Shown: positions 6,729 to 48,379 of the stretch, one piece after another
Layout: every line of letters starts with the position of its first letter
How positions within the stretch are numbered: position 1 is the first letter of the stretch
The notes under the pieces: model-generated
What the model was told of the DNA's origin: nothing
The model's input: the letters and a program-made list of their open reading frames with translations, nothing else
Database searches by the model: none
Program-made: the position numbers and the translations under genes
Assembly: GCA_903928075.1 (NCBI GenBank)
Contig: CAIYPD010000018.1
Coordinates: 1 to 48,379 of the forward strand
Reading direction: 5' to 3'
DNA from: Candidatus Firestoneibacteriota bacterium
GTDB taxonomy: Bacteria; Oederibacteriota; D2-FULL-39-29
DNA: 48,379 nucleotides

Positions 6729-9614
6729 TTATTCTTTTTTACTTAAATACCAGGTTTTTGTATTTTCATCGGTCTTAAAAAATTCCGCAAGCAGCTGCGC
6801 TACTTTTTCCGTACCTGACCGTGAGGGATGCGTACCGTCAGGTCCAAAATCTTCTTTATTCCAGATAAGCCCGTCACTTTTTCTCGGCGTTGTTCCGTTT
6901 CCCCATAAATACGGCCCCCATAAAAGTACCGGCGCTTCTCTCTTCCCTTTGGAAATATCCGCGTTTAAATCAATCTTTCCGTTTATCTGGTCAAGAATCA
7001 ATCCTCTTACAGAAAAGGCGCCTTCAAAAGCATATGGCTCGGGATTCAGTGTGGTAGTCGCATAACCGCCGTATATTCTTGAGGACAAGTATATCAATTG
7101 CAGGTTAGGAAATTTTACTTTAGCATATTTAACAAGTTCATTCAGCGCGGCTTTCAGAAATTTGGTATGCGCCGGAAACTCGCCTTTTCCTGCGGGCTGG
7201 GCCAGGGCCTGCTTAAGCCAGACAACCTGAACCTGTTTAGCCGAAACTTGCTGGCCTTTCAATCTCTTTTCAACAGTAAGCCAGATATTTTCTTCCCGCC
7301 CGGAACCCGGAATCCAGGCCTCGGCCGTCATTCCGCCCTGGGCGCCGTCTACGATAATGACCGCGGGATTCTTATCCCTGTCCACTGCCGCCTGCCTCAT
7401 TAAAATTGACGACTCCTGCGAGGTGTTTGACATCCCTATGGTACAAAGGACTATCTTTCCGGCAGTAGAGGGATTGCCGTTTTCATCCAGTAACTTTATT
7501 TTTTTTGTTGCTTCCGCTGCAAGGTTTTTATGGTAGGAAGGCGGCTCATTACTCCCCTTTCCGTATAGCCCGCCGTCCTCACCTTTATAAGAAACTTTCA
7601 ACTCAGAAAGCGGTAAAATCCCTTCCACGGTCTGCGCCCCCGCATTTGGACCTGGCCCTTGCATATCGTAATTACTTCTCACTTGCGGTTCTGCTTTTTG
7701 TGGGGCCAACACCGCCTTTTGCAAATACTCCTGCTCTTTGCTTAATTTTTTTACTTGGACCGGAAAGTCCTTCATAATTTCTTCGTTACTTACTCCGCAA
7801 TATATTCTTGATTCCGAGTTGACCACACAGGTAGCCGGTGTTGAGGAGGTAGAGGAACCCGAATACGAATGATTTACTATTATTATTTTTGCTCCATTAG
7901 ATACATTTTTTTTCAAAGAATAATTGAAAATCAAATAAGTATTAGGAATAGATATTATTTGGCCATTTTCAAGGTTTGCTGTCAAGGAGCTAATAGCATT
8001 ACTTTCTTCTGAAACCCGGGCTATATAACTAATGCTCCCATAAAAAATGAGTTTCCCGGGAATGCTTAGTTTTGCCGGAAGCAGGGACAGCCTGCTTGCC
8101 TGAGGAACTCTTTTCGCAACTTCTTCTATAAAATACTCATCCGGAATCTCCGTGTTTAATTTCAAAGAAGAAATATTCTCACTGCTTACTTTCTTCCCGC
8201 CATTATAAGATTCTATTAAATACGGCATTGCCCATTTATCCGTCGTTTCCTTGTAATCAAGAAATTTCCTGACATCTGTTTGCCGACCACCCTGCACCCG
8301 CCTGAGTATTCTCTCCTCTTTCATAAGGCAAAGAGTACTTTTATCCACCCAGATCTTGTAATTCAGATTTAACCCGGTAGTTTCGCTAATCTCAATTACA
8401 TAGCAATCTTTGCCGTCGACATTTTCACTCCCCGAGATATTCGCAGCTTTCTTATCCAGTTCCCACCAATCATTAAAAACCTGAAAAAAAAGCATATCCA
8501 TATCTTCTTTACCTGCAGGAAAAGGGGATATTCTTGTTCCGGTCCAGTTTTTTTTCAAAATAGACCCGGTTTCTCCGTCGTAAATCCAAACCTGATTATT
8601 ATTTTTCAGTTCAGGCCGTGAAAACTGAGACTCTATTCTAATATTCCTGCCTTTCTTAAAAACCTTTACCTTGTTAAATTCATCGCTCCTGCTTATTACC
8701 AGCTCAACATTGCTATCGTTATTCATAAAACTCTTGAATCTATTTTTTGCTGCTTCAAATATTTTGTCAACTTCGCGCTCCTGATTTGTACTTTCCGGAT
8801 CGTCTTTTTCTTGCGCTTCAGGTTTTGATGGACCGCTCGCTGCGGCCTTATTGGCTGCTTTGATTTTTTCCTGTTGCGTAAGAAACATATCTTCCGGAAT
8901 ATCAAGATTCAATTTTAGCGATTTAATGTATTCAAAAATGCTTTCCTTTTCGCCTCTGGGAAATTCCATGGTAAATGCCATCTCCCAGGTGCCTGCAACT
9001 TTCTGAAAATCTTTGAAGTTCTTAATAATGTTTCGCCACTGCAATGGCACAGCTGTAGCTCTGTTTTGGGCATCAATATTGAAATCCCTCTTTTTTTCTT
9101 CTTTCACCATCTGAAGGTTATTTTTATCCACCCAAATTGTATATTTTTCCCCTACATTTCCTGTAATTTTGGAACAATCAATTATATAGCAATCTTTCCC
9201 GAAAAATTTCTCACTTCCCTCCAGCCGCGCTTTTTTTGTATCAAATTTCCACCAATCCCGGAAAATCCAATAAAAAGCATTATTAATATCTTTTCTATAA
9301 AAATAATCTTTATCCATTGATATCAAGCCCCCAGACAGCTTATATTTGCTTCCGGTCTCGCCATCATAAAACACAACATGCTGTATAGTTTCTTTTTTAA
9401 ATATGCTTTCTATTCTTATCTTATTTCCTTTTTTGTAAACTCTGTATTTTACAGAGTCCTTATCTTTTATCTCAAATTTCAGATTTGTAGTGTCGTCCAG
9501 GAATTTTTGAAAGTTATTTTTTGCTTCTTCCGCTATTTCTTCAAGACTAGGAGCAGCACTTTGAGCGGTACAGGCGTAAAGGCTGATGAAAACAAAAAGC
9601 ATTAACTTTTTCAT
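6729..9614 (-). CDS. Large secreted protein: two LolA-like repeats plus C-terminal SGNH hydrolase
   Basis: 961 residues with a signal peptide (MKKLMLFVFISLYACTAQSA). Residues about 20-250 and 280-500 are two copies of one beta-rich unit, each with TNLKFEI or a similar opening, YDGETGS, a Trp-rich DWW segment, a GSE-GKDCY-I strand, and IWVDK-L---KEE; this layout resembles LolA/LolB-type outer-membrane lipoprotein sorting domains. A further beta region spans about 515-640. The C-terminal part (about 715-955) is an SGNH/GDSL-type hydrolase: IGMSNTSQES near 730 supplies the Ser, and DGTHPSRSG near 930 the Asp/His. GAGGAG lies eight bases before the ATG. The same repeat occurs three times in the neighbour at 13338. 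Substrate unknown; a carbohydrate ester is a reasonable guess. Confidence 0.8.
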   Translation of the reverse strand: MKKLMLFVFISLYACTAQSAAPSLEEIAEEAKNNFQKFLDDTTNLKFEIKDKDSVKYRVYKKGNKIRIESIFKKETIQHVVFYDGETGSKYKLSGGLISMDKDYFYRKDINNAFYWIFRDWWKFDTKKARLEGSEKFFGKDCYIIDCSKITGNVGEKYTIWVDKNNLQMVKEEKKRDFNIDAQNRATAVPLQWRNIIKNFKDFQKVAGTWEMAFTMEFPRGEKESIFEYIKSLKLNLDIPEDMFLTQQEKIKAANKAAASGPSKPEAQEKDDPESTNQEREVDKIFEAAKNRFKSFMNNDSNVELVISRSDEFNKVKVFKKGRNIRIESQFSRPELKNNNQVWIYDGETGSILKKNWTGTRISPFPAGKEDMDMLFFQVFNDWWELDKKAANISGSENVDGKDCYVIEISETTGLNLNYKIWVDKSTLCLMKEERILRRVQGGRQTDVRKFLDYKETTDKWAMPYLIESYNGGKKVSSENISSLKLNTEIPDEYFIEEVAKRVPQASRLSLLPAKLSIPGKLIFYGSISYIARVSEESNAISSLTANLENGQIISIPNTYLIFNYSLKKNVSNGAKIIIVNHSYSGSSTSSTPATCVVNSESRIYCGVSNEEIMKDFPVQVKKLSKEQEYLQKAVLAPQKAEPQVRSNYDMQGPGPNAGAQTVEGILPLSELKVSYKGEDGGLYGKGSNEPPSYHKNLAAEATKKIKLLDENGNPSTAGKIVLCTIGMSNTSQESSILMRQAAVDRDKNPAVIIVDGAQGGMTAEAWIPGSGREENIWLTVEKRLKGQQVSAKQVQVVWLKQALAQPAGKGEFPAHTKFLKAALNELVKYAKVKFPNLQLIYLSSRIYGGYATTTLNPEPYAFEGAFSVRGLILDQINGKIDLNADISKGKREAPVLLWGPYLWGNGTTPRKSDGLIWNKEDFGPDGTHPSRSGTEKVAQLLAEFFKTDENTKTWYLSKKE

Positions 9615-13337: not shown

Positions 13338-16300
13338 TTACTTTGTGTTTTTATCAGGAAGACTAACAATCCATCTTTCCCAAATACGCTGAAAACCGTT
13401 TAGTTTCATTTTTAAGACAGTTTCCAGCGTGGTTTTTCCTGTTTTGTCTGTATTATAGTCTTTTTTATATTGTTCGTAAAACATTTTCAACAGGTCTTTC
13501 TCCTGTAAATATAACCCGAGATACCTGACCTCGGCGTAAAACAGTTCAATATTTTTCCCGTCCATTAATTCCTCATTACTCATTATTATAAGTTTTTCAA
13601 GTGGTATTATTTTGTCGTTTGCAATGCCGTCCAGCATTGACTCGAAACGCCCCCCCAGTTTATTTAACTCAATTTTATTAAGTTTCTCATCATAATCAAT
13701 CTCTTCATTACCTGTACTGAGCATCTCTTTCAGCCACTTTGGATGCGACTGGTTATTCTTGCTGGCATCTCCCGCGTGAAGCGCGTGTGTATATTCATGA
13801 CTGAAAACACCAAGCCCGGAATATATATCGGTAAACAATACGCCGTAGGAGGGGTCAAAAAGTCCGCTAAAATATCCGTCACTCCCCGTGAGCATTCCTA
13901 TCATTGCGCTGTTAACATCATCTTTATCAGAAAATATCCATAAGACACTAAAGGGCGACTGCTCAAACATCAGATTTGCCCGGGCATACTCCCCGAAAAG
14001 CCCGGTAAATTTTCTTATCTGCTCAATATATTCTTTTTCTTTTACATCCGTAAATATTAAAACATTATCTGTTTTAAGTTTTACTTCATAATAACTTGCA
14101 AGTTCCTTTCTTATTGAGACCAGCAGATTTTTTCTTCCCAGCGCATACAGTTTTGGTTTATCATTAAGAAGAAAATCTAATTTCTTGTTTTCCACAAGTT
14201 TATTAAAATCCTTCTCTTCAAATATAGAGGCAAAATCGCAATAGCCGCTCTCAAAAGCTGTTTTTAATGCAGCAGCTGCTGGCTCATCCTTTCCTTTTTT
14301 GGCAAGCATTACAGCTTTAAGAAAGAGTAATTCGGCATCCTCCGGAAACTTTACCAGTTCGACCTCTATTACCTTCTCCGTTTCTTCGTACTTTTTTTCT
14401 TCTTTTAATTTATATATTTCCTCAAGCTTTGGGCTGAAAAATGAATGGGCGACCCGGGTTGCTTCGCCTGCAGTTATGGTAGAAAGCATGTTCTTCTGGT
14501 ATTTATCCGCTTCTTCTTCCGGAAGAAGTTCATATTCAAAATCAATGGTGACCAGGGTGTTTTTTACTTTCAGAAATACTTCCCTGGATTTAACTGTCTC
14601 GCCATCTTCATTCTCATACTCTATTTTAAGGACTATCACCTCCGTTGCCTTTATTTTCACTCTTGTTTTATCGTCAATTTTGGCCCCGGGATATTTTTTA
14701 GCCAATCTTTCTTTGTAAGAAGCTGTTATTGTTTCCAGATTTTCTGAAGTATAATTCTTATGAATAGAGATTTTCCCGTCACCCTCTATAATATCATCAC
14801 CCGCTTGCGCTTTTTTCTTTTTATTCACAGGATTAAACTTATACACATTATAGTAATAAATGGACCTTGAGAAGTCCTCGGGAACTACAAACGAAAAACC
14901 GGTTATAGCATCCGAAAAACTACGGCCCAGATAGCGTTTCTTGCTCTTAAAATCTTTCAACTCTTCCTGAAACTGCTCAATTTCCGTTTCTCTTGCCTTT
15001 TCAATTTTATTGCGCCTGTTTATAGCCTTGCATTTTAATTCCGTCTTAATGCTATTCTCAATCAGCGCCGCTTTTTCATCGTATATGACATTATCCGGCT
15101 CAGAGAATTTTTTTGACAAAATAAGAATTTTAGAGACGGTTTTACGCAAATTGTCTTCACCGGTCATCTTAATGAAAGAAGGAAATTCAAAACCTTCCTG
15201 TTTGGTATTTTTATATGAATAATTTACCTCTTCTATTTTAACTTCTCCGGTTATATATATGGATTCCCTCTTAACTCTTAGAAGGCGGTTATTTTCTCTG
15301 TCCACCCAGAAATAGGTATGCCGTTTATCGCTTTCGTTCTTTCTTATAAGATAGCAATCCCGTTCATTGGATTTCTCTATTCTCAGTATTTCAAGTCCGG
15401 ATAAAGTATTTTGCCACCAATTAAGCGACAGGTCAGAGTCACTGAAATACCCGCCTCTCATACCCAGGGAAGAGGTACTACCGGAGGTATAATCATGAAT
15501 AAACCGGAAGTCGTGTGTAAGGTTCCCGGCGGCGGTTGTGGAAAATATCTCCCACCTGATCTTTTCACTTCCTTTGAATATTTTACCGTCCAGCCTATTA
15601 CTTGTTATTATTTTATTTTCTTGTGTTGTAGATGAACCTGTAAATATCATTTCAATACTGTTCTTCCGGTCTTTATTTATAAGCGCGGTTTTTGCTTTTT
15701 CTATAAGGCCGGGAAGTATTTCGTTTGTCATTTTTTCGTCAAGAGGTTCTATTTTTAATGCTTTTTCTGCTTCTTTTTTCTTCTCGAAGGAGGCAAATTT
15801 CTCTGCCTTGGCTTTTTTTTCTACGGATTCTCTTCCGGCAATGCAATTAAACTCCAATTTAGTTATTTCAAGAAAAATACAACTGAACAAATTCAGGTTG
15901 TCTTTCATTTTATATTCAGGATGAGTGTTCTTAACTTTTATTTGAGACACAAAATCCTTAATTTCTATTTCATGGTAATTTTTTCCCACAGGATTGAATA
16001 TTTTCAGAGATTTATAATCGCCGTTTTCATTAAGATAACTGACCTGCGCCCCCAGATCATAGTATACAGAAACCGGTAAATCAACCCGCGCGGGTTTTCC
16101 TTCGGCTTTGAATATTATCTTGGATATATAGACCGGCACTTTCAAATTAATGATAAAATCGTTCGGTCCTATTTTTGGTGAACCCGATATAAAACCTTTG
16201 TAAATTTCAGTACTGGCATTGGAAATATTCATACTTGTCGGACTTACATTTAAATTAAAACGCAAAACAATATTTTCTTCCTTCTCAAAAACAGGCAGCG

Positions 16301-17900
16301 GATGTTGTGTCTCCTGCTCAGGCGTGTTGATTCTATTAGGTGACCATTCCGGAGGGACTATTTTTGTAACTTCTTCAGTAAAATAGTCATCCGGAATATC
16401 AGCGTTTGTTTTGAAGGAAATAATTATTTCGCTGTAGCTCATTTTTAGCTCTTCTCTGATATTCATATTTCCATTCTGCTGCGATTCTATAACAAACGGC
16501 ATTTCAAATTTACCTTCTATTTCCTTGTACCCGGTAAATTTTCTTACTGTTATTTGCTGCCTGTCCTGCGGCAACTTAAAAGTTTGTTCGTCCTTAAGCA
16601 GGGAAAGAGTGTCTTTACCCACCCAGATTTTGTACCCTAAAAACTCCCCGAATTCTATAATATAACAATCCTTCCCGTCAACATTTTCACTACCGGAAAT
16701 TACCACATTTTTCTTATCGAGCTCCCACCAATCTTTAAATACTTGATAGAAAAGCGAATGTACAGATTCTTTACCGGGAATAAAAGAACTTTTCCGTACA
16801 GCAGTTTGAAACCTTTGCAGAATCTCTCCGGCTGCACCGTCGTAAATCAACATCTGATTAGTAAGTTGTTCCGTAGCCCGGGAATATTGGGATTCGATTC
16901 TTATTTTTTTCCCTTTTTTAAAGATCTTAAATATATTAAATCCATTAAAGCGATCTATGACAAGCTCAATCGGCTTATCATCATTCAAAAAGTTTTTGAA
17001 TTTATTTCTCGCATCCTCAAATAATGCATCAATTACCGCGCTCTCGCCTGCATTCACCGGCTTTTTTATTATTTTCGCTTCAGGTTTTGGCGAACTACTG
17101 GTTGAAGTGATATTACTTGCTTTTATTTTTTCCGGTAGAGAAAGGAATAAATCTTCAGGAATATTCTCGCCTAATTTTAACGCCTTTAAATATTTAAAAG
17201 TATTTTCTTTCCCTTTTTCGACAGTTTCCGTAATAAACGGCATTGCCAAGCCCCCCGCCACTTTTCTGAAATCCTTGTATTGTCTCACAGAGGCTTGTAC
17301 GGACATTTTATTTGCTGCAGGGTCCTTTTGGCCGGCTCCCTCAATACTCCCGGTCTTTTCTTCTTTTAAGAGGAGAAGAGTTTCTTTATCCACCCAGATT
17401 TTATAATTTTCCCTCGGCTCCGGCTTGCGATAATTAATAACATAACAATCCTTTTCTAAAAATAATTCACTTCCGGTTATCTGCGCATTTTCCTTGTCAA
17501 TTTCCCACCAATTCCTAAAAACCAGGTAAAAAGGATTAGCAACATCATTTTTCGTCCTTACTAAATAATAATCCCTGCCTTTTGCTGCTGCCTCCCCAAA
17601 ACTGCTAAAATTATTTCCTGTTTCTCCGTCATAAAACCAAACAGACTCAATAACTTCTTTTTTTGCGAACTCCACTATTTTTTTTCGTACACCTTCTATC
17701 CTTACCTGTTTGCCTTTTTTGTAAACCCTCCAAAGCACATTATTCTTATCCGAAATTTCAAATTTAAGATTTGTCGTATCGTTTATAAATATTTTAAAAT
17801 TATTTTCTGCTTCTTCGGATATTTTGGCAATGCTAAAAGCATCGCCTTGAACAGGACAGGCAAAAAATACTATCAATATTAAAAGAAATATTTTTTTCAC
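13338..17900 (-). CDS. Giant secreted metallopeptidase with three LolA-like repeats
   Basis: 1520 residues with a signal peptide (MKKIFLLILIVFFACPVQG). The LolA-like unit seen twice in the gene at 6729 occurs here about at 30-260, 285-525 and, more diverged, 735-960 (FWVDRENNRLLRVKRE). Between the second and third lies a beta-sandwich (about 545-700). Residues about 1010-1140 (GFSFVVPEDFSRSIYY) look like a PsbP/DUF1795-type domain, about 1158-1250 is TPR-like, and the C terminus is a gluzincin peptidase: HEYTHALH near 1367 and WLKE about 20 residues later give the HExxH plus Glu zinc site of the peptidase MA-like family. Start is GTG with only a weak AAAGG upstream. It follows lacZ after 34 nt. 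Confidence 0.82.
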   Translation of the reverse strand: MKKIFLLILIVFFACPVQGDAFSIAKISEEAENNFKIFINDTTNLKFEISDKNNVLWRVYKKGKQVRIEGVRKKIVEFAKKEVIESVWFYDGETGNNFSSFGEAAAKGRDYYLVRTKNDVANPFYLVFRNWWEIDKENAQITGSELFLEKDCYVINYRKPEPRENYKIWVDKETLLLLKEEKTGSIEGAGQKDPAANKMSVQASVRQYKDFRKVAGGLAMPFITETVEKGKENTFKYLKALKLGENIPEDLFLSLPEKIKASNITSTSSSPKPEAKIIKKPVNAGESAVIDALFEDARNKFKNFLNDDKPIELVIDRFNGFNIFKIFKKGKKIRIESQYSRATEQLTNQMLIYDGAAGEILQRFQTAVRKSSFIPGKESVHSLFYQVFKDWWELDKKNVVISGSENVDGKDCYIIEFGEFLGYKIWVGKDTLSLLKDEQTFKLPQDRQQITVRKFTGYKEIEGKFEMPFVIESQQNGNMNIREELKMSYSEIIISFKTNADIPDDYFTEEVTKIVPPEWSPNRINTPEQETQHPLPVFEKEENIVLRFNLNVSPTSMNISNASTEIYKGFISGSPKIGPNDFIINLKVPVYISKIIFKAEGKPARVDLPVSVYYDLGAQVSYLNENGDYKSLKIFNPVGKNYHEIEIKDFVSQIKVKNTHPEYKMKDNLNLFSCIFLEITKLEFNCIAGRESVEKKAKAEKFASFEKKKEAEKALKIEPLDEKMTNEILPGLIEKAKTALINKDRKNSIEMIFTGSSTTQENKIITSNRLDGKIFKGSEKIRWEIFSTTAAGNLTHDFRFIHDYTSGSTSSLGMRGGYFSDSDLSLNWWQNTLSGLEILRIEKSNERDCYLIRKNESDKRHTYFWVDRENNRLLRVKRESIYITGEVKIEEVNYSYKNTKQEGFEFPSFIKMTGEDNLRKTVSKILILSKKFSEPDNVIYDEKAALIENSIKTELKCKAINRRNKIEKARETEIEQFQEELKDFKSKKRYLGRSFSDAITGFSFVVPEDFSRSIYYYNVYKFNPVNKKKKAQAGDDIIEGDGKISIHKNYTSENLETITASYKERLAKKYPGAKIDDKTRVKIKATEVIVLKIEYENEDGETVKSREVFLKVKNTLVTIDFEYELLPEEEADKYQKNMLSTITAGEATRVAHSFFSPKLEEIYKLKEEKKYEETEKVIEVELVKFPEDAELLFLKAVMLAKKGKDEPAAAALKTAFESGYCDFASIFEEKDFNKLVENKKLDFLLNDKPKLYALGRKNLLVSIRKELASYYEVKLKTDNVLIFTDVKEKEYIEQIRKFTGLFGEYARANLMFEQSPFSVLWIFSDKDDVNSAMIGMLTGSDGYFSGLFDPSYGVLFTDIYSGLGVFSHEYTHALHAGDASKNNQSHPKWLKEMLSTGNEEIDYDEKLNKIELNKLGGRFESMLDGIANDKIIPLEKLIIMSNEELMDGKNIELFYAEVRYLGLYLQEKDLLKMFYEQYKKDYNTDKTGKTTLETVLKMKLNGFQRIWERWIVSLPDKNTK

Positions 17901-21151: not shown

Positions 21152-21180
21152 ATTTAACAAAGGATTAGCCCTTTTGTTAA
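21152..21180 (-). terminator. Possible terminator hairpin after the lipoprotein gene
   Basis: Arms TTAACAAAAGG and CCTTTGTTAA, with one bulged base and a six-base loop, overlap the stop codon of the 157-residue lipoprotein. The following tract is A/T-rich but not a clean U-run, so termination would be weak. The remaining spacer to lacZ holds nothing else I recognise. Confidence 0.35.
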
Positions 21181-21650
21181 TAAAGTATAAAATTTCCGCC
21201 CATCGATATTTGATTACCGTTGATATCTTCACCGGAAATAACTACAACCAAATTAAGCTGGGTTAAGGCGTTGGCGGTTTTATAAGCCGTAACACTGGCA
21301 TTCGTTACATTAATAGTGATATACCCTGTTGCCGGGGCGGCAACACTTCCGGAGCCCGCTATATAGGCCGTAATTTTATTATCAATTGAAATAGGGAGAA
21401 GTCTCCCGTTTACATCATAATAATCAATACTGTAGTCGGTAAAAGTGGTGTCCACACCGTTAGTTATGGTAACAAAAGCTTTTGCTGCATGCGGCGCGGC
21501 GCCAACCAGAGTCAGCGACACCGCCTGAAGATTGGTCATATCCGTAAAATAAGAGATTTTTGCGTCAGCTTTAGGATTAAAGAGCGGGGTTTTGCACCCG
21601 GCAAAAAGCAGGCAGACCGCCAGAGTCGCACAAAATAAAGTCTTTTTCAT
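21177..21650 (-). CDS. Small lipoprotein of unknown function
   Basis: 157 residues with a lipoprotein signal peptide: MKKTLFCATLAVCLLFAGC, lipobox LFAGC, Cys 19. The mature part is all-beta, rich in Thr, Val, Ala and Asn, with a segment about the form of a Greek-key or Ig-like domain (AKAFVTITNGVDTTFTDYSI, YITINVTNASVTAYK, NLVVVISGEDINGNQI). I recognise no family. GGAG lies six bases before the ATG. It lies downstream of the secretin and IPT genes in the same direction but across a 245-nt, repeat-filled spacer, so it may be a separate unit. A pilotin-like or surface accessory role is only a guess from position and size. Confidence 0.65.
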   Translation of the reverse strand: MKKTLFCATLAVCLLFAGCKTPLFNPKADAKISYFTDMTNLQAVSLTLVGAAPHAAKAFVTITNGVDTTFTDYSIDYYDVNGRLLPISIDNKITAYIAGSGSVAAPATGYITINVTNASVTAYKTANALTQLNLVVVISGEDINGNQISMGGNFILY

Positions 21651-21662
21651 AATACACTCCTC

Positions 21663-21716
21663 ATAAAGTCGATAGGGTCTGTAAAGTCCGTAAAGTTCGT
21701 AAGGTCTATAAAGTCG
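21663..21716 (+). repeat. Tandem array of six 9-nt units
   Basis: Six successive 9-mers in perfect phase: ATAAAGTCG, ATAGGGTCT, GTAAAGTCC, GTAAAGTTC, GTAAGGTCT, ATAAAGTCG; consensus RTARRGTYB. They lie just upstream of the lipoprotein gene. The same unit recurs, in both orientations, at 21788-21805, 21869-21895, 25524-25550 and 28432-28458. Confidence 0.85.
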
Positions 21717-21787
21717 AAAGTCTTACCTTATTGTAGTATTAATTTTTGTGAAAACATATTTTTAAAATAATATCCTTCAACGATTTT

Positions 21788-21895
21788 AGACTTTAAGAAC
21801 CTTATCTCGCTATGCCAAAGTATTTTGGCATCTATATATCTCTACCTAGCGAGAAAAGCTTTGCTTACAAACCTTATGAACCTTATAGACTATTT
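21788..21895 (-). repeat. Reverse-oriented 9-nt units flanking a hairpin
   Basis: Two units at 21788-21796 and 21797-21805 (on the minus strand TTAAAGTCT and ATAAGGTTC) and three more at 21869-21895 (ATAAGGTTT, ATAAGGTTC and a diverged AAATAGTCT) belong to the family at 21663 but are inverted. The last unit abuts the secretin stop codon. The stretch 21771-21804 is nearly repeated at 25507-25540. Confidence 0.7.
21805..21854. repeat. Nested inverted repeats downstream of the secretin gene
   Basis: Inner perfect hairpin ATGCCAAA-GTAT-TTTGGCAT at 21812-21831 lies inside a 7-bp outer pair TCTCGCT (21805-21811) and AGCGAGA (21848-21854). There is no U-run, so it is not a standard intrinsic terminator; it may protect the 3' end of the secretin mRNA or be a repeat-element core. 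Confidence 0.6.
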
Positions 21896-22882
21896 TTATT
21901 TAAACTCATCCGGCGCTACTAGTTTTTCCCCTTCTTTGATTACATGCGGAGTAATGAAAATAATAATTTCTGTTTTTACTTTTTCCACGGCGGATTTTTT
22001 AAACAGGAGGCCGAGCAAAGGCAGATCGCCCAGGATGGGAAGCTTATATTCCACGGTCAGGGATTTATTCCGGAGCAAGCCGCCGACCATAAGTGTTTCA
22101 TTGTCGCGCACGATGACGGCGCCGTCCACTTTTCTCTGAGAAATTATGGGGTCACCGGTCGAAGCACTGTACTCAAGAACTTCACTGACTTCCGGATGAA
22201 TGTCCAGCAGGATATAGTTATCCTCCTTAATGGTTGGGGTAACGCGAAGCTTGACACCGGTCTCTTTAAAAAGGGTAGTGGAGACAGTAATAGTACCCTG
22301 CGTAGTCACGGATTTAATCGGAATCTGGTCGCCGGTATTAATACTGGCTTCCTTGCCGTTTAAAGTCACGATGCTGGGACTGGAAAGCAGGTCGGTATTG
22401 GTCTGGGTTAAAAGGTACTGGAGAATTATATTAAAGCCGTCGGTACGGAGTGTGCCGAACTGCCCCGAAAACTTGCTGTCGGCGGGAACAAAATTTTCCA
22501 GAAAAGATTTTATTTCTTTGTTGGAATTATTATAAAGGTCCTGCCAGGTCCAGTTGACCCCCATCTTATCCGTGGTTGAGAGTTTAGTCTCCACAATTTT
22601 GGCTTGTATCCGTATCTGGGCCGTTTTCAGGTCTACAAGTTTTAACATATTCTCAAAGATATTTATATTTTCCTGGGTATCGGTAACCATGGCCATTTTA
22701 AATTCTTCATTAACTTCCAGGCCCATATTAGGAAGCATTTTGGTGACCACATACTTAAATTCCTTGGCGGAGATATAATTCAGATAATAGTATTTGGTTA
22801 TTTTAGCCGCGGGCGGGACGGGCAGCGGCGCCGCAAAGAAAAGAGCAGAACAAAATACCAGTAAAATAATTGTTTTCATCAT
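21896..22882 (-). CDS. Short secretin (type II/III secretion or pilus family)
   Basis: 328 residues, about half the usual size of GspD/PilQ. After a signal peptide (MMKTIILLVFCSALFFAAP) there is a single N-domain (about 30-95, YYYLNYISAKEFKYVVTKML, then VDLKTAQIRIQAKIVETK), then the secretin core: LLSSPSIVTLNGKEASINTG, GVKLRVTPTI, ILLDIHPEVSEV, MVGGLLRNKS and VEYKLPILGDLPLLGLLFKK. These match the outer-membrane beta-barrel domain. The N0 domain and other periplasmic modules are missing. The start overlaps the stop of the IPT/TIG gene (ATGA), and a second ATG follows directly with better spacing to GGAG. No ATPase, pilin or other secretion gene is in the window, so its partner system is unknown; the IPT protein is the natural partner. 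Confidence 0.88.
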   Translation of the reverse strand: MMKTIILLVFCSALFFAAPLPVPPAAKITKYYYLNYISAKEFKYVVTKMLPNMGLEVNEEFKMAMVTDTQENINIFENMLKLVDLKTAQIRIQAKIVETKLSTTDKMGVNWTWQDLYNNSNKEIKSFLENFVPADSKFSGQFGTLRTDGFNIILQYLLTQTNTDLLSSPSIVTLNGKEASINTGDQIPIKSVTTQGTITVSTTLFKETGVKLRVTPTIKEDNYILLDIHPEVSEVLEYSASTGDPIISQRKVDGAVIVRDNETLMVGGLLRNKSLTVEYKLPILGDLPLLGLLFKKSAVEKVKTEIIIFITPHVIKEGEKLVAPDEFK

Positions 22883-24780
22883 TTCTCCAGTTCGCGTATA
22901 ACCAGATCGGTAATATCCGGCACATCTTTTACCGGGTTGCCTTCCTTATCGGTAACATAGCCCACTTCCCCGATAAGATCATATTCGTATTTTTTCTGGA
23001 TCAACTTGTAGATATCTCTTACCGATTCATTGATTTTGTTTATGGTGAGCCAGTACCGGGCAACATCCGAAGATATATTGTCCCTGACAATAACCTGGTA
23101 AAGGGGATGCTCGAGATAGATCTTCTTTTTATTTACTTTTGCCGGTTTCCTGAAGCTGTTAATATCCCCGTAATAGATACTTTCTTTGTCGACTTTATTT
23201 ATGCCGAAACAGTCCTGCATTTCAAAGGAACCCCCGTCGGTGTTGGAGAGATAGACATCTCTTTTTTCCAGCGTGGCTTTTGCGCCGACGGTAACCCGGG
23301 TTTTCAGCAAACCGGGACCCGCGTATTCCACATCACCTACAACTATCCCTTCCCCGCTTATTTTTATCGCGGTGCTTTTGGTAAAGCCCTGCCCTCTAAT
23401 CTCTATTTCCTGGGCAAAAACGCCCTGGACTGCGCTGGCCGGCATTATCTCTTTAATTGCAGGATTAAGGTTGATCTTGAAAGAATTCTTTAGAATACCC
23501 GTTCCCCCGTCAGGATTGACGGCTAAAACATCAAAAGCGCCTTCGAGTGCCCGGTCGGAAACATTGATTACCGCCAGGATTTGTTGGGGCATTCTTGTAT
23601 CGGAATTTGTTATTCTTATTCCGGGGGTGCTGAACTTTATCTGTGTATCCTTGCTGAAATTATTTCCGGTGATGGTAATAATCCGGTTCTCGGCGCCCTG
23701 GGGTAACTGATCCGGCGTTACCGCACTGAGCACAGGCCTTAAAGAAACAGTGAGGTAAAATTTCTGATTACCGCCGTCAGGGGCAAAAAGTACGAGTTCT
23801 TTCTTTCCGGGTACGGCCAGGTCCGCGACGGTTACATTTATGACCGCCTCGTTCTCCGAAAGCACAAATATATTATTTACCGCCAGGCCGTCGTCTTTGG
23901 TTTCGACTTTCAGGGATTTCGAAAAGTTACTTCCTTTTATCGAGATCTCCAGACCAAGCGACCCTTGCGGTACGGTCTGCGGCAGGACACTATTGATACC
24001 CAGCGCGGTGGTAACTTGAAGTTTATTGCCCGCGCTCTCCCCGTCGGGATTTATGAGCTTAAATTTTATCTCCCCCGGTTTGGCCGAAGAAGCTACATCA
24101 ATGCTTAATTTTATTTCTTTATCGGATTTAACCTCCACGGACTGCGAAACCAGTTCACCCGTACTTTCCAGAAAGTCAATTTTCGCTCCGGGCAAAAACC
24201 CGGTACCGCCCAGGGTCACCTCGTTTCTCAGAGAGCCCTGCCGGATTTCTTTCTGCACCACGGCGTTTACTTCAGGTTTACTCATTATCTGTACTGCGTT
24301 CTTAAGCATTGCAGTGGTGTCTGCCGAGTTTTGCACTAAAAGGTCATACTTTCCCGGCTTTGCGCCTTCTCTTACGGTTACGGAAAGTTTCACGCTATCA
24401 GGCGCAATTTCGCCAAGATTGTCTATGGTAAGGTGTTCGGTTGCAAATTTAACTAAAATACTTTTGGCAAATTTTACTCCGGTTATTTTAAAGTCAAGAT
24501 AGCATTTACCGGGATAAAGTTTAACAGGATTTACACTTTTGATTTCCGGCACGGGCACCGGGGCCGGAACTAAAGAAACACTGCCGTCTAAAGCAGTAAT
24601 TGTCGTGCTTCCATCGGAATTTACAATGGTTTTCGGGGTGGAGGCTGTCGGGACGGCCGGAAGCGCCTCCGCGGTAATTTCTTTAACCGCAGGCGCGGCA
24701 ATGGCTTCCGCAAAAAGAAAACCCTGAAGCAGGCATAAAAAAAGAGTTATGATGAAACTCTTGCCGGATACACTTTTCAT
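22879..24780 (-). CDS. Secreted IPT/TIG-repeat protein
   Basis: 633 residues: signal peptide (ending FLFAEAIA), a Pro/Ala/Thr-rich linker to about 78, five Ig-like IPT/TIG repeats about at 78-167, 168-257, 260-345, 348-437 and 440-527, and a distinct C-terminal domain about 528-633. Each repeat opens with a form of I-S-V-P-----QG and the later ones close with NPDGG, APDGG or NTDGG. The C-terminal part contains a helical section (YWLTINKINESVRDIYKLIQ) and IGEVGYVTDKEGNPV. Such repeats build surface stalks or line secretion ports. Its stop overlaps the secretin start, so the two are made together. The ATG lies six bases after a -10 box, with no Shine-Dalgarno site. Confidence 0.85.
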   Translation of the reverse strand: MKSVSGKSFIITLFLCLLQGFLFAEAIAAPAVKEITAEALPAVPTASTPKTIVNSDGSTTITALDGSVSLVPAPVPVPEIKSVNPVKLYPGKCYLDFKITGVKFAKSILVKFATEHLTIDNLGEIAPDSVKLSVTVREGAKPGKYDLLVQNSADTTAMLKNAVQIMSKPEVNAVVQKEIRQGSLRNEVTLGGTGFLPGAKIDFLESTGELVSQSVEVKSDKEIKLSIDVASSAKPGEIKFKLINPDGESAGNKLQVTTALGINSVLPQTVPQGSLGLEISIKGSNFSKSLKVETKDDGLAVNNIFVLSENEAVINVTVADLAVPGKKELVLFAPDGGNQKFYLTVSLRPVLSAVTPDQLPQGAENRIITITGNNFSKDTQIKFSTPGIRITNSDTRMPQQILAVINVSDRALEGAFDVLAVNPDGGTGILKNSFKINLNPAIKEIMPASAVQGVFAQEIEIRGQGFTKSTAIKISGEGIVVGDVEYAGPGLLKTRVTVGAKATLEKRDVYLSNTDGGSFEMQDCFGINKVDKESIYYGDINSFRKPAKVNKKKIYLEHPLYQVIVRDNISSDVARYWLTINKINESVRDIYKLIQKKYEYDLIGEVGYVTDKEGNPVKDVPDITDLVIRELEK

Positions 24781-24786
24781 ATGTTA

Positions 24787-24815
24787 ATTGTATCTATTTT
24801 AGTGTTTTAAGTCAA
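24787..24815 (-). promoter_or_regulatory. Sigma-70-type promoter giving a leaderless mRNA
   Basis: On the minus strand TTGACT (24815-24810), exactly 17 bases, then TACAAT (24792-24787), then TAACAT and the ATG of the IPT gene at 24780. Start of transcription would fall on or next to the A of the ATG. There is no purine-rich ribosome site. Confidence 0.75.
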
Positions 24816-24875: not shown

Positions 24876-24904
24876 AAGGGCAAAACCCGATAGGCCTTGC
24901 CCTT
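24876..24904 (-). terminator. Intrinsic terminator after the small Cys-rich gene
   Basis: Perfect 8-bp arms AAGGGCAA and TTGCCCTT around a 13-base loop, followed on the minus strand by TTCTATT, after an arm end that is itself T-rich. It lies between the stop at 24923 and the promoter at 24815, separating the two transcripts. Confidence 0.6.
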
Positions 24905-44184: not shown

Positions 44185-46497
44185 TCATTTGCTAACTGCT
44201 GCTTTAAGCTTTCTGATAAGGACCTCAAGAGCTGTTTTTTCTCCATCCTGAAGATTTAAACTATTTTTAAAATCATAATTTGTATTTTCCTTCTTCCTTT
44301 TTTTATAAAGTTCATTCAGGTCACTCTTTGTTATCTCTGCTGCCGCGCAAACAGCCAGAATATCGTCATTACTTATACCCGGATTCTTTAAAAGTTCAAG
44401 AATGCTTTCTTTTGCAATCCCCGTATTCTGACTGATTATTTCCGGAAAATCCACACCCGCCGAGGAGGCACTGTGGACAGCTCCACCGGAAGAATTTCCG
44501 TCAATAATATTCGCAACCTCTCCGGCAACCGAAAACAACTTCTTTTCCCTTTCTTGCCAGCCGAGAACATACCATTCTTTCCCTTTAGTTGCCTGCTCTA
44601 CCGTTATTTCATTATCATGGTTCTGAAAAGCCGGAATATCTTTACCTGACTTTTTTATGGCACTATACAGGCCTTCAAGGGGATATCTGCCCAAATCTGT
44701 AGCGCCTATTTTTTTTAGGTCTTCCTCGTCGTTCCATATGGTTTTCCACATAGCATGCTGAAGCTCATCAAGCGTATCCTGACAACGTTTTGCCAGCCCT
44801 GATCCTATTTTAGCTTTTTTAGTACTATTTAGCAGAGTGTCTTCCAGAAATATCCTTGCCTCGCATACCTGAGCTCCTTCCTTAAGCATCTCTAACCGCA
44901 CTGTCCCAATTGCCCCATCCGGTCCCGGAGCAAGAAACCAGTCAGCAATATCCAGGTTACGCCAATTGTTCTCGGGGTAACGGGTATAGACAAGTGCGGA
45001 CCGCTCGCCTTTTTTGTTTTTTAACACGGGCCAGTAATCCGCGCCCATTCTACCGCCTCCGCGCTGTCCTCCCGTAATATCGAAAGCAAGAAGTTCGCGG
45101 ATATCCAAAGCAGAGGCCTTGCTTAAAACGCCTCCCCGCTCAAACGCCGTCAGCAAAGCCGGATTACGCCAGCCATACATCCGGCCTTTTTCCGGGTTTA
45201 CATTGTAGATCAGATTATACACATAAGCAGAATAACCGATATCTGAAATCTTATATAATCCCTTATTCCCGATCATTACATCATTAGCAGCTCCGGCATG
45301 TCCGTGTATAGCCCACGCCAGCCCTCCCGACACATCCTTCCAGAAGGTAACCTCTTCTTTGTTCGGCCAGAGATCGGGCATTATGCCCAGCATCATTGTC
45401 TTTTCCAGACCTCGCTTTTTCATCCGCTTAATTATTTCTGTGAACATAGGCTGCCAGAGAGCTTTGCTTTCCGGATCCTCATAACGGGGAAGTATCAAGA
45501 CACTGCTTGCCTTAGTTTCCGGATCAATTGCAGTTACTCTTGGACCTTTTCCCAGGAGCGCCTGTCTGGCTATTCCCGTTTCGTTATCTTTGCTCCAGTT
45601 CGGAAGTCCTCTTTCGAGTGACTTTGCGGACATGCATATATCCCAAACCAGAAAAATGACCAGCTTGGGTTTACCCAGGTTATTTTCGGCCGAATCCAGG
45701 TATCTGTCAAAAACGGTAAAGTCATACTCATATTTCTTTTCGCCTTTTTTGACCCAGCGCACCATTGACTCTTCATTGCCAAAGTTTGTACGGCAAATAA
45801 GCGGAACATAAACAGTACGGGCCCCGCTCGGACTTAAGAGCCCAAAAGAGCGATCTATCATTTTCCAATGTTTTTCAGACCAGAGTGGCAGGTTATATTC
45901 AAGAGCAAGAGTATCGGGAGATTGCATGAAGTCTATCCAGGTTCGGTAATCCTGCGGATCAGGCAGTGTCCAATCCACAACTTCCAGATTTAGTTTCACA
46001 TTAACAAATGGGGAATTTGCCGTCTGGAGAGATATTGAACCGGTATATATTCCTGCTTTTGCGTCTTTTGGTACTTTTACCGTGACCCAAACGGGCAGGA
46101 ACCGGGCGCCTTTCTCGGGTAACAATTCAGGCGCAGACTCCGCAAGATTATCTCCCCCCTTTGGCCACCAATCTGCATAGTTGTTTTTCTCCCACTCCTT
46201 CCCATAGCGAACTTGCACATTTTTCGCGGAAATGTCACCGGCTTTGCCGGTTAGATTCCCTACGGACGCTTTAACTCCTTTTATAACTCCGGTAGATTCG
46301 ACAATTATCTTACCCGAGAGTGTTCCGTTTCTGGCCCCGACTAAAAGAACAGGTTTCAATTCCTTAACCGCTTTGTACTTTCTTTCATTTACAATTGAAT
46401 CACAGGTCCATATCTTTTCGTCCGCAACAAGCAGCTCAGGTATTAAGGCAGTTAGCATTGTCGAAATAAAAGCCAACGCAAAAAATGTCTTTTCCAT
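44185..46497 (-). CDS. Secreted DUF4091 protein, putative glycoside hydrolase
   Basis: 770 residues. The start is the ATG at 46497, seven bases after AGGAGG; the frame is open further upstream, but nothing there looks like a signal peptide. From 46497 a signal peptide follows (TFFALAFISTMLTALIPELL). An N-terminal beta-sandwich (about 40-170, with VPKDAKAGIYTGSISLQT) leads into a TIM-barrel-like part with DWTLPDPQDYRTWIDFMQSP, VIFLVWDICMSAK and WDFT-like Trp-rich strands, ending in GGQRGGGRMGADYWPVL. DUF4091 proteins are barrel proteins with glycosidase-like folds, mostly uncharacterised. The last 200 residues are helical and seem specific to this pair. It is a near-duplicate of the next gene, 91 nt away. 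Confidence 0.85.
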   Translation of the reverse strand: MEKTFFALAFISTMLTALIPELLVADEKIWTCDSIVNERKYKAVKELKPVLLVGARNGTLSGKIIVESTGVIKGVKASVGNLTGKAGDISAKNVQVRYGKEWEKNNYADWWPKGGDNLAESAPELLPEKGARFLPVWVTVKVPKDAKAGIYTGSISLQTANSPFVNVKLNLEVVDWTLPDPQDYRTWIDFMQSPDTLALEYNLPLWSEKHWKMIDRSFGLLSPSGARTVYVPLICRTNFGNEESMVRWVKKGEKKYEYDFTVFDRYLDSAENNLGKPKLVIFLVWDICMSAKSLERGLPNWSKDNETGIARQALLGKGPRVTAIDPETKASSVLILPRYEDPESKALWQPMFTEIIKRMKKRGLEKTMMLGIMPDLWPNKEEVTFWKDVSGGLAWAIHGHAGAANDVMIGNKGLYKISDIGYSAYVYNLIYNVNPEKGRMYGWRNPALLTAFERGGVLSKASALDIRELLAFDITGGQRGGGRMGADYWPVLKNKKGERSALVYTRYPENNWRNLDIADWFLAPGPDGAIGTVRLEMLKEGAQVCEARIFLEDTLLNSTKKAKIGSGLAKRCQDTLDELQHAMWKTIWNDEEDLKKIGATDLGRYPLEGLYSAIKKSGKDIPAFQNHDNEITVEQATKGKEWYVLGWQEREKKLFSVAGEVANIIDGNSSGGAVHSASSAGVDFPEIISQNTGIAKESILELLKNPGISNDDILAVCAAAEITKSDLNELYKKRKKENTNYDFKNSLNLQDGEKTALEVLIRKLKAAVSK

Positions 46498-46588
46498 TTT
46501 CAAACCTCCTGACCCGGGATGTTTAGTCTGTTTTAAAATATGCTTCATTATGCCAAACTGACCCGGTTTCCAAATTTCCAAACTAGAT

Positions 46589-48379
46589 TCATTTTTTCAC
46601 TTCAGCTTTAAGCTTTTTGAGAAGAGCATCAAAAGCTGCTTTTTCTTCTTTTTCAAGATTCAAGCTATTCACAAAATCATAATTAGTGTTTTCTTTCTTC
46701 CTTTTTTTATAAAGCTCCTTCAGGTCACCCTTTGATATTTCTGCCGCCGTACAAACAGCAAGAATATCGTCATTGCTGATACCCGGGTTCTTTGATAGTT
46801 CAAGAATGTTTTCTTTTGCAATACCCGTATTTTTGCTAATGGCTTCCGGGTAATCAACTCCCATTGAGGAAGCACTGCGGGCGGCACCGCCTGAAACATT
46901 CCCCTCAAGAATATTAGCAACCTCCCCTGCAAGCGAAAAAAGTTTCTTTTCCCTTTCCTGCCAGCCGGCAGAATACCATTCCTTGCCTTTGGTCGCTTCC
47001 TCTACCGCTATTTTATTAACTTCATTTACAAAAGGCGGCATATTTTTACCTGCCTTTTGCAGAGCGTAATACAAGCCCTCGCTCGGATATCTTTGCCCGG
47101 ACGCCTCACCTATTTTTTTTAAGTCTTCTTCGTTGTTCCAGACAGTTTTCCACATAGCGTGTTGATGTTCATCAAGCGCATCCTGACAGCGTTTTGCCAA
47201 TTCCGTCTTGAGCTTAGATTTTTTAGAACTATCAAGAAGCGTGTCTTCCAGAAATATCCTTGCCTCGCATACCTGCGCCCCTTCTTTAAGTCCTTCCAGG
47301 CGGTTTGTCGCAAGCGCGCCGTCGGGACCCGGAGCAAGAAACCAGTCGCAAATATCAAGGTTCCGCCAGTTATTCTCAGGATAGCGCGTGTAGACCCCTC
47401 CGGCACGCTCTCCTTTTTTATTTTTTATAACAGGCCAGTAATCCGCGCCCATTCTTCCGCCTCCGCGTTGTCCTCCCGTAATATCAAGAGCAAGAAGTTC
47501 ACGAATATCAATAGAGGTGGCCCTGTTCATAAGGCCTCCCCTCTCGTAAGCTGTAAGCAGCGCCGGATTCTTCCAGCCATACATCCGGCCCTTTTCCGGG
47601 TTTACATTGTAAGTCAGATTATAGACAAAAGCGGCATACCCTATATCGGAGATTTTGTATAAACCCTTATTCCCTATCATTACATCCTTGGCAAATCCGG
47701 CATGCCCATGTATCGCCCACGCCAGTCCTCCGGACACATCCTTCCAAAAGTTCACCTCTTCTTTGTTAGGCCAGAGGTCAGGCATTATACCGAGCATCAT
47801 TGTCTTCTCCAGGCCGCGCTTTTTCATCCGCTTAATTATTTCCGCGAACATAGGCTGCCAGAGAGCTTTGCTTTCCGGATCCTCATAACGGGGAAGTATC
47901 AGGGTATCGATTCCTTTAGTAACAGGGTCAAGGACAGTCACTCTCGGTCCCTTGCCAAGTAATGATTCACGATTCTTTCTGACCTCGCTTTCTCCGCCCC
48001 AAAGTCCTCTTTCGAGCGACTTTGCCGACATGCATATATCCCAAACCAGAAATATTACCAGTTTTGGTTTACCCAGATTCTTTTCGGCCGAATCCAGGTA
48101 TCGGTCAAAGACGGTGTAGTCATAATCGTATTTATTCCCACCTTTTTTTACCCAGCGCACCATTGACTGTTCATTGCCAAAGTTTGTCCGGCAAATAAGC
48201 GGCACATATACAGTACGGGCACCGCTCGGGCTTAAAAGTTCGAAGGAGCGGTCTATCATTTTCCAATGCTTATCAGACCAAAGCGGCAGGTTATATTCAA
48301 GAGCCAGGGTATCAGGAGACTGCATGAAATCTATCCAGGTGCGGTAATCCTGAGGGTCGGGCAAAGTCCAATCCACGAC
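46589..48379 (-). CDS. Secreted DUF4091 protein, paralogue, 5' end cut by window
   Basis: The last 596 codons of a gene whose start lies beyond 48379; the frame is still open at the edge, reading VVDWTLPDPQ, exactly as inside its neighbour. Judged by that copy, about 170 residues are missing. Alignment by eye shows roughly four in five residues identical over the whole length, with no gaps apart from small ones near SLERGLPNWSKDN (here SLERGLWGGESEV). This is a tandem duplication. Divergence is concentrated in the helical C-terminal third. Function as for the neighbour: probably acting on a glycan outside the inner membrane, unproven. Confidence 0.88.
   Translation of the reverse strand, partial: VVDWTLPDPQDYRTWIDFMQSPDTLALEYNLPLWSDKHWKMIDRSFELLSPSGARTVYVPLICRTNFGNEQSMVRWVKKGGNKYDYDYTVFDRYLDSAEKNLGKPKLVIFLVWDICMSAKSLERGLWGGESEVRKNRESLLGKGPRVTVLDPVTKGIDTLILPRYEDPESKALWQPMFAEIIKRMKKRGLEKTMMLGIMPDLWPNKEEVNFWKDVSGGLAWAIHGHAGFAKDVMIGNKGLYKISDIGYAAFVYNLTYNVNPEKGRMYGWKNPALLTAYERGGLMNRATSIDIRELLALDITGGQRGGGRMGADYWPVIKNKKGERAGGVYTRYPENNWRNLDICDWFLAPGPDGALATNRLEGLKEGAQVCEARIFLEDTLLDSSKKSKLKTELAKRCQDALDEHQHAMWKTVWNNEEDLKKIGEASGQRYPSEGLYYALQKAGKNMPPFVNEVNKIAVEEATKGKEWYSAGWQEREKKLFSLAGEVANILEGNVSGGAARSASSMGVDYPEAISKNTGIAKENILELSKNPGISNDDILAVCTAAEISKGDLKELYKKRKKENTNYDFVNSLNLEKEEKAAFDALLKKLKAEVKK

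What the first reader, a model, noticed from the sequence alone, without database searches (positions are those of the whole stretch)
21896..24780. Minimal secretin translationally coupled to a five-repeat IPT/TIG protein
The secretin is only 328 residues, with one N-domain and no N0 or pilotin region, and its start overlaps the stop of a secreted protein made of five IPT/TIG repeats and a novel C-terminal domain. No ATPase, pilin or inner-membrane platform is nearby. IPT domains are known from PilQ-associated and surface stalk proteins. The pair could be a reduced outer-membrane pore with its own periplasmic or surface stalk, i.e. an undescribed secretion or surface-display system.
Basis: partly seen in the sequence, partly recalled or inferred. 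Interest (0 to 1): 0.68.

Follow-up and report, generated by a model that had tools for sequence, protein, structure and literature searches.

The report
Minimal secretin with Ig-rod periplasmic partner
In a few uncultured Firestonebacteria a tiny outer-membrane pore protein is made together with its own rod-shaped, chaperone-tipped partner and a small lipoprotein, which looks like a stripped-down, undescribed outer-membrane export pore separate from the cell's other secretion machines.

Summary
The trio is conserved in three genomes of one Firestonebacteria family. Secretin and lipoprotein occur only together and only with the IPT gene. A congener (G001) has the IPT gene alone at this locus; its IPT protein, above all the C-terminal domain, evolves much faster there while flanking genes do not. 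This ties the IPT protein to the secretin. The C-terminal domain resembles a short-armed Skp/OmpH head (weak but consistent signal). The genome holds T2SS/T4P and Tad loci with their own secretins, so this is not a displaced fragment. Short secretins are common in this phylum, but as Tad CpaC; this one is not Tad, GspD or PilQ by neighbours or score. Best reading: an accessory outer-membrane pore whose missing periplasmic rings and assembly aid come from a dedicated IPT-Skp-like partner and a lipoprotein. Substrate and energy source are unknown. New variant of a known kind.

The parts
24787..24815 (-). sigma-70-type promoter TTGACT-17-TACAAT ending 6 nt before the IPT start codon (leaderless mRNA inferred)
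   Evidence: best promoter-like match of the region; same layout TTGACT-17-NANAAT-6/7 nt-ATG in G001, G002 and G004
24876..24904 (-). terminator-like hairpin closing the upstream Crp/NifU-like/Zn-protein unit
   Evidence: 13-pair stem with 6 G-C pairs
22879..24780 (-). IPT/TIG rod protein, 633 aa, N-terminal signal peptide and Pro/Ala-rich linker (residues 1-78)
23203..24546 (-). five tandem IPT/Ig-like domains (residues 79-526)
   Evidence: AF2 model; NCBIfam CoaZ repeat, 5 stretches; fold search hits tandem-Ig rods
22882..23202 (-). C-terminal domain (residues 527-633), Skp/OmpH-like short-armed head
   Evidence: Pfam OmpH in all four members, best E 0.0015; only PDB profile hit is Outer membrane protein H; most conserved domain when the secretin is present
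22879..22882 (-). stop/start overlap (ATGA/TGATG) coupling IPT gene and secretin gene; GGAG at 22888-22885
21896..22882 (-). minimal secretin (327/328 aa): signal peptide, one N-domain (res 29-88), complete secretin pore domain (res about 91-317), no S-domain
21177..21650 (-). 157-aa lipoprotein (lipobox ...FAGC-K), third member of the unit
   Evidence: no known family

Best explanation
The three genes encode a small, accessory outer-membrane secretin complex. The secretin supplies only the gated pore and one periplasmic ring. The co-translated IPT protein is exported by Sec and stays in the periplasm as a five-Ig-domain rod; its C-terminal Skp/OmpH-like head binds the secretin (nascent subunits or the finished ring) and does the work that N0-N2 domains, and probably part of the assembly chaperoning, do in full-size secretins. 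The lipoprotein anchors or pilots the complex at the outer membrane. Shown: the anatomy, conservation, co-occurrence, joint absence, and loss of constraint on the IPT protein when its partners are gone. Inferred: physical binding, periplasmic location, the roles of head and lipoprotein, and that something is exported.
For: Trio in the same order in G000, G002 and G004 (secretin 84-86% identical, IPT about 61%, lipoprotein about 55%). Lipoprotein occurs in exactly the genomes with this secretin, none of 41 others in the phylum. IPT family in 4 of 45 genomes. In G001 secretin and lipoprotein are absent, the IPT stop is followed within about 35 nt by the next gene, and IPT changes run 87:31 (repeats) and 30:7 (C-terminal domain) against G000, versus 13:24 in three flanking genes (Fisher p about 1e-4). 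The C-terminal domain is the most conserved part when the secretin is present (76-90%) but 53-57% without it. OmpH-like head: AF2 order strand-helices-helix-hairpin-helix. Precedents: RcpC supplies the periplasmic conduit for the short secretin RcpA (PMC12307814) with lipoprotein pilotin TadD (PMC10499894); a Skp homologue is a structural part of the T9SS translocon (PMC10994853).
Against: The Skp/OmpH signal is weak (13-17 bits against a cut-off of 32.4 in the tables shown; hhalign probability 15%; composition explains part of it, 1-4 of 120 column shuffles as good). No complex was predicted. The lipoprotein model is worthless (pLDDT 39). The secretin PulD uses a dedicated pilotin and a path apart from SurA/Skp (PMC4604470). 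The IPT ORF survives intact in G001 without the secretin, so it may have a use of its own. Only three trio genomes, all one family.
Confidence: 0.45

Rival explanations
1. The secretin is an alternative outer-membrane exit for the cell's T2SS or type IV pilus: the inner-membrane engine encoded elsewhere works in trans, and the IPT protein adapts it to the short pore.
For: The genome has three E/F platform loci, Tad-like genes and many GspE/PilB-type ATPases. Best scores of the secretin are to GspD (193 bits) and PilQ (170), and it falls with PilQ/GspD rather than Tad in the tree, without a resolved position. No engine gene is near.
Against: The C93 (T2SS-type), C100 (PilQ), C125 and C124 (Tad-like) secretins sit in their own loci, and such systems exist without the trio in G003 and G001. 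The secretin lacks the N0 ring that normally docks on GspC/PilP.
Confidence: 0.25
2. The IPT protein is the cargo: a surface rod or adhesin exported through its own dedicated secretin, a two-partner-like arrangement, with the lipoprotein as surface anchor.
For: Cargo-exporter gene pairs are typical of two-partner systems. A second short secretin in G002 (C82, 334 aa) lies 53 bp behind a 1856-aa NHL/Ig-like surface-type protein. Rods of IPT/Ig domains are common in surface proteins.
Against: The most conserved part is the C-terminal domain, which looks like a periplasmic chaperone head. Secretins generally pass folded cargo only with an engine. The two G002 secretins are only about 33% identical and do not group in the tree.
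Confidence: 0.2
3. The secretin is a leftover or a moved piece of a Tad or pilus locus with no present function.
For: Tad CpaC proteins here are equally short (315-340 aa).
Against: 84-86% identity across genera, the most conserved gene of the trio; it lies outside the fully supported Tad clade and has a Secretin_N domain; in this family Tad-type secretin genes are separately present.
Confidence: 0.05
4. A filamentous-phage-like (pIV) or DNA-uptake pore.
For: Stand-alone secretins are known from filamentous phages; pIV is in the same superfamily (PDB 7ofh hit).
Against: No phage genes around; stable syntenic locus behind Crp/NifU-like genes in four genomes; no coat-protein or assembly ATPase genes.
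Confidence: 0.05

Closest known systems
Tad secretin complex RcpA (CpaC) - RcpC (CpaB) - TadD
   Same: Short secretin with one small N-domain whose periplasmic extension is a separately encoded neighbouring protein, plus a lipoprotein (PMC10499894, PMC12307814). Phylum Tad CpaC are also 315-340 aa.
   Different: No CpaB, CpaE/TadZ, ATPase or Flp pilin; secretin outside the Tad clade; partner is a soluble IPT rod, not an inner-membrane-anchored oligomer; the lipoprotein gives no TPR match.
T9SS extended translocon (SprA-SkpA-SprE)
   Same: A Skp homologue used as a structural part of an outer-membrane export channel, together with a lipoprotein (PMC10994853).
   Different: Pore is a secretin, not SprA; the Skp-like head is fused to IPT repeats and has short arms; no T9SS parts seen.
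Type IV pilus secretin PilQ / T2SS secretin GspD
   Same: Complete secretin pore domain; best NCBIfam and PDB matches.
   Different: No N0 or AMIN domains, one N-domain only, no PilMNOP or GspC-M neighbours, scores far below family cut-offs (193 of 351; 170 of 284).
Skp/OmpH periplasmic chaperones
   Same: C-terminal IPT domain matches the OmpH end (profile 93-141 of 141) and, in PDB 9yju, both ends of the head in order.
   Different: Arms almost absent, fused to five Ig domains, below the curated cut-off; each genome has an ordinary Skp besides.

Membership tests
Secretin superfamily (PF00263) | Secretin pore domain over the curated cut-off, full length | tested here: met
   153 bits, profile 4-169 of 169
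Secretin superfamily (PF00263) | At least one Secretin_N periplasmic domain | tested here: inconclusive
   23.5 and 26.4 bits, just below the cut-off of 28.2, full profile covered and in the right place
T2SS GspD | N0-N3 domains and GspC-M neighbours; equivalog score | tested here: not met
   one N-domain, no platform gene on contig; TIGR02517 193 of 351 bits
Type IV pilus PilQ | N-terminal AMIN/N0 domains, PilMNOP operon, subfamily score | tested here: not met
   TIGR02515 170 of 284 bits; no such neighbours; own PilQ-type secretin at C100
Tad RcpA/CpaC | Groups with Tad secretins and lies in a CpaB-CpaC-CpaE locus | tested here: not met
   outside the 15-row Tad clade, support 100/100; no Cpa neighbours
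Tad-like complex (works like) | Neighbour-encoded periplasmic extension binding the secretin N-domain | not testable with these tools
   no complex prediction possible; indirect support from lost constraint in G001
Skp/OmpH | Profile score over the curated cut-off | tested here: not met
   13-17 bits in the tables shown, cut-off 32.4
Skp/OmpH | Head topology strand-helix...helix-hairpin-C-terminal helix, collinear at both ends | tested here: inconclusive
   AF2 order fits (block pLDDT 44-83); 9yju two collinear segments, E 0.18, part of the first segment is an expression tag
Skp/OmpH | Long helical arms forming a client cavity | tested here: not met
   only about 26-residue helix (573-598) plus short helices
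IPT/TIG-repeat proteins | Tandem IPT domains | tested here: met
   PF01833 57.5 bits, CoaZ repeat 5 stretches, five Ig domains in the model
Secretin pilotin lipoproteins | Known pilotin fold and binding to an S-domain | tested here: inconclusive
   no family match, model unusable, secretin has no S-domain; co-occurs strictly with the secretin

The most novel reading that the evidence does not exclude
A stand-alone export pore without pilus or ATPase, built from a minimal secretin, an IPT rod with a Skp-derived head that serves as periplasmic scaffold and assembly factor, and a lipoprotein: an undescribed outer-membrane transport system of Firestonebacteria.
Probability: 0.25. Interest if true: 0.75.

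Novelty: new variant of a known kind. Interest (0 to 1): 0.52.

Why it matters
Secretins are known as exits of engine-driven machines. A pore reduced to one ring plus barrel, with the missing periplasmic part given by a separate IPT-Skp-like protein, would show the smallest set needed for a working secretin, a second case (after T9SS) of a Skp fold turned into a structural part of an export channel, and a compact system that could be tested by co-expression in laboratory E. coli.

Tried and rejected
Tad secretin fragment: rejected by tree and neighbours. Divergent neighbours in G002/G004 (TPR protein; OmpA/beta-propeller protein) as part of the unit: rejected, the OmpA/propeller protein has no match in G000 or G001 and neither gene is at the window locus. 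Wider distribution: the genome scan with the secretin found one family member (Ca. Firestonebacteria RIFOXYA2_FULL_40_8) and only pilus/T2SS-type secretins elsewhere; its peptide patterns were narrow, so distant members could be missed. TIG proteins next to secretins elsewhere in the phylum: none in the listed matches, both lists being cut. Search of another phylum covered one genome only and shows nothing. Lipoprotein: no family, no usable model, only chance-level PDB hits. NCBIfam on the C-terminal domain gave only scattered chance hits. Literature: no paper found that joins secretins with TIG domains or describes this unit; one search asked for 'secretin' with 'IPT domain' but ranked only general T2SS papers.

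Full report
WHAT IS THERE. On the minus strand, behind a Crp-type regulator, a NifU-like gene, a small zinc-protein gene and a terminator-like hairpin (24904-24876), a promoter TTGACT-17-TACAAT (24815-24787) ends 6 nt before the IPT start codon. All four genomes with the IPT gene keep this layout (TTGACT-17-NANAAT-6/7 nt-ATG), so the messenger is probably leaderless and the start codon is secure. Then follow the IPT protein (633 aa), the secretin (328 aa; more likely 327 from the second ATG, which fits GGAG spacing and the homologues) and, 245 nt on, a 157-aa lipoprotein. In G002 and G004 the lipoprotein starts only about 10 nt behind the secretin, so there it is one operon.

THE SECRETIN is complete as a pore: Pfam Secretin 153 bits over the whole profile, one N-domain in front, nothing else. 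Nearest solved structures are GspD, then PilQ, RcpA and pIV. It scores far below the GspD, PilQ and MshL family cut-offs. In a 53-row tree it is a long, well-supported branch of its own, outside the Tad clade, in an unresolved comb with PilQ and GspD types. Secretins of 315-340 aa occur in many genomes of the phylum, but as CpaC in CpaB-CpaC-CpaE loci.

DISTRIBUTION. The phylum held here has 45 genomes. The IPT family is in 4, the close secretin in 3, the lipoprotein in the same 3. One of them is Ca. Firestonebacteria RIFOXYA2_FULL_40_8, which places the window in that candidate phylum. G001, of the same genus, has the IPT gene followed at once by a hairpin and the beta-galactosidase gene that in the window lies behind the lipoprotein. 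G003 (94% complete, reduced genome) lacks all three and the Crp orthologue. G001 is only 86% complete, so a secretin elsewhere in it cannot be excluded.

A FUNCTIONAL LINK FROM EVOLUTION. With the secretin present, the C-terminal domain is the most conserved part of the IPT protein (76, 78, 90% against about 53-80% for the repeats); in G001 it drops to 53-57%. Relative-rate counts with G002 as outgroup: repeats 87 changes on the G001 side to 31 on the G000 side, C-terminal domain 30 to 7; with G004, 78:39 and 32:6. Three genes just upstream (Crp, NifU-like, Zn protein) give 13:24 and 11:27. The difference between the C-terminal domain and these controls is significant (Fisher p 1e-4 and 2e-6). 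So constraint on the IPT protein is relaxed where the other two genes are missing. This is the best evidence that the three products work together.

THE C-TERMINAL DOMAIN. Pfam's OmpH is the only family matched by all four members (best E 0.0015, the window's own member 0.083, against 24,736 models), covering the end of the profile exactly (93-141 of 141). Of the reversed and six shuffled versions, none hit OmpH. A profile search of 177,635 PDB sequences returned a single sequence up to E 10: Outer membrane protein H (9yju, E 0.18), aligned at both ends of the head and skipping the arms; part of the first segment is an expression tag. The model shows helix 573-598, a hairpin and a C-terminal helix as in Skp. 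Against this: hhalign to 13 OmpH of the phylum gives only P 0.0018 and probability 15%, and column shuffles match the enrichment in 1-4 of 120 trials. I put the Skp/OmpH relation at about 0.7. By the curated cut-off it is not a member of OmpH.

THE REST OF THE GENOME. Five secretins: C93 (T2SS-type, on the contig with an E ATPase and F platform protein), C100 (PilQ-type in front of aroC), C125 (pilus/T2SS-type; orthologues follow PilM-like genes), C124 (Tad-like, cut by the contig end) and this one. Other secretin systems occur without the trio in G001 and G003, so the trio is an accessory, not their missing part.

MECHANISM. Most likely the IPT protein is a periplasmic partner that supplies length and assembly help to a secretin too short to cross the periplasm, the lipoprotein fixing or piloting the complex at the outer membrane. 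Five Ig domains could span roughly the depth of a periplasm (own estimate). The same division of labour is known for RcpA, RcpC and TadD of Tad, and Skp used as a structural element of an export channel is known from T9SS. Energy and cargo are open: sharing a resident engine, or exporting the IPT rod itself, are live rivals. A second short secretin in G002, right behind a 1856-aa NHL/Ig-like protein, hints that pairing short secretins with large Ig-type proteins happened more than once in this lineage, which favours the cargo rival somewhat.

VERDICT. Observation confirmed and enlarged, interpretation partly supported, new variant of a known kind, interest 0.52.

Noticed in passing
L045:7981-8985(+) and L119 (G002 contig C82): A second stand-alone short secretin (334 aa, about 33% identical) sits 53 bp behind a 1856-aa NHL/Ig-like protein and further large secreted proteins (848 and 1702 aa), with a phage-type integrase 0.5 kb downstream.
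   Followed up: partly
G002 contig C18 around 117000-119700: An open frame of 26,721 codons with TIG domains, i.e. a giant surface-type protein.
   Followed up: no
window 21651-21895, also upstream of IPT and behind the lipoprotein in L013: AT-rich spacers made of imperfect repeats such as GACCTTACGAACTTTACGGACTTTACAGACC and GTTTATAAGATTTGTAAAG; they look like dispersed intergenic repeats of this lineage.
   Followed up: no
L012:3978-7879(+), L013:5180-9081(-): In G002 and G004 two genes divergent from IPT encode a TPR protein and a beta-propeller protein with an OmpA domain; no match for the latter in G000 and G001.
   Followed up: partly
window 6729-9614 and 13338-17900: Two large proteins (961 and 1520 aa) with LolA-like matches in a carbohydrate cluster beside beta-galactosidase and a beta-helix protein.
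   Followed up: no
window 44185-46581 and 46589-48376: Tandem GH123-like glycoside hydrolases with alike C-termini, probably a duplication.
   Followed up: no
L014:8928-10892: The congener G001 keeps an intact but fast-evolving IPT gene without secretin or lipoprotein, with a hairpin right behind its stop: a natural partner-loss case.
   Followed up: yes
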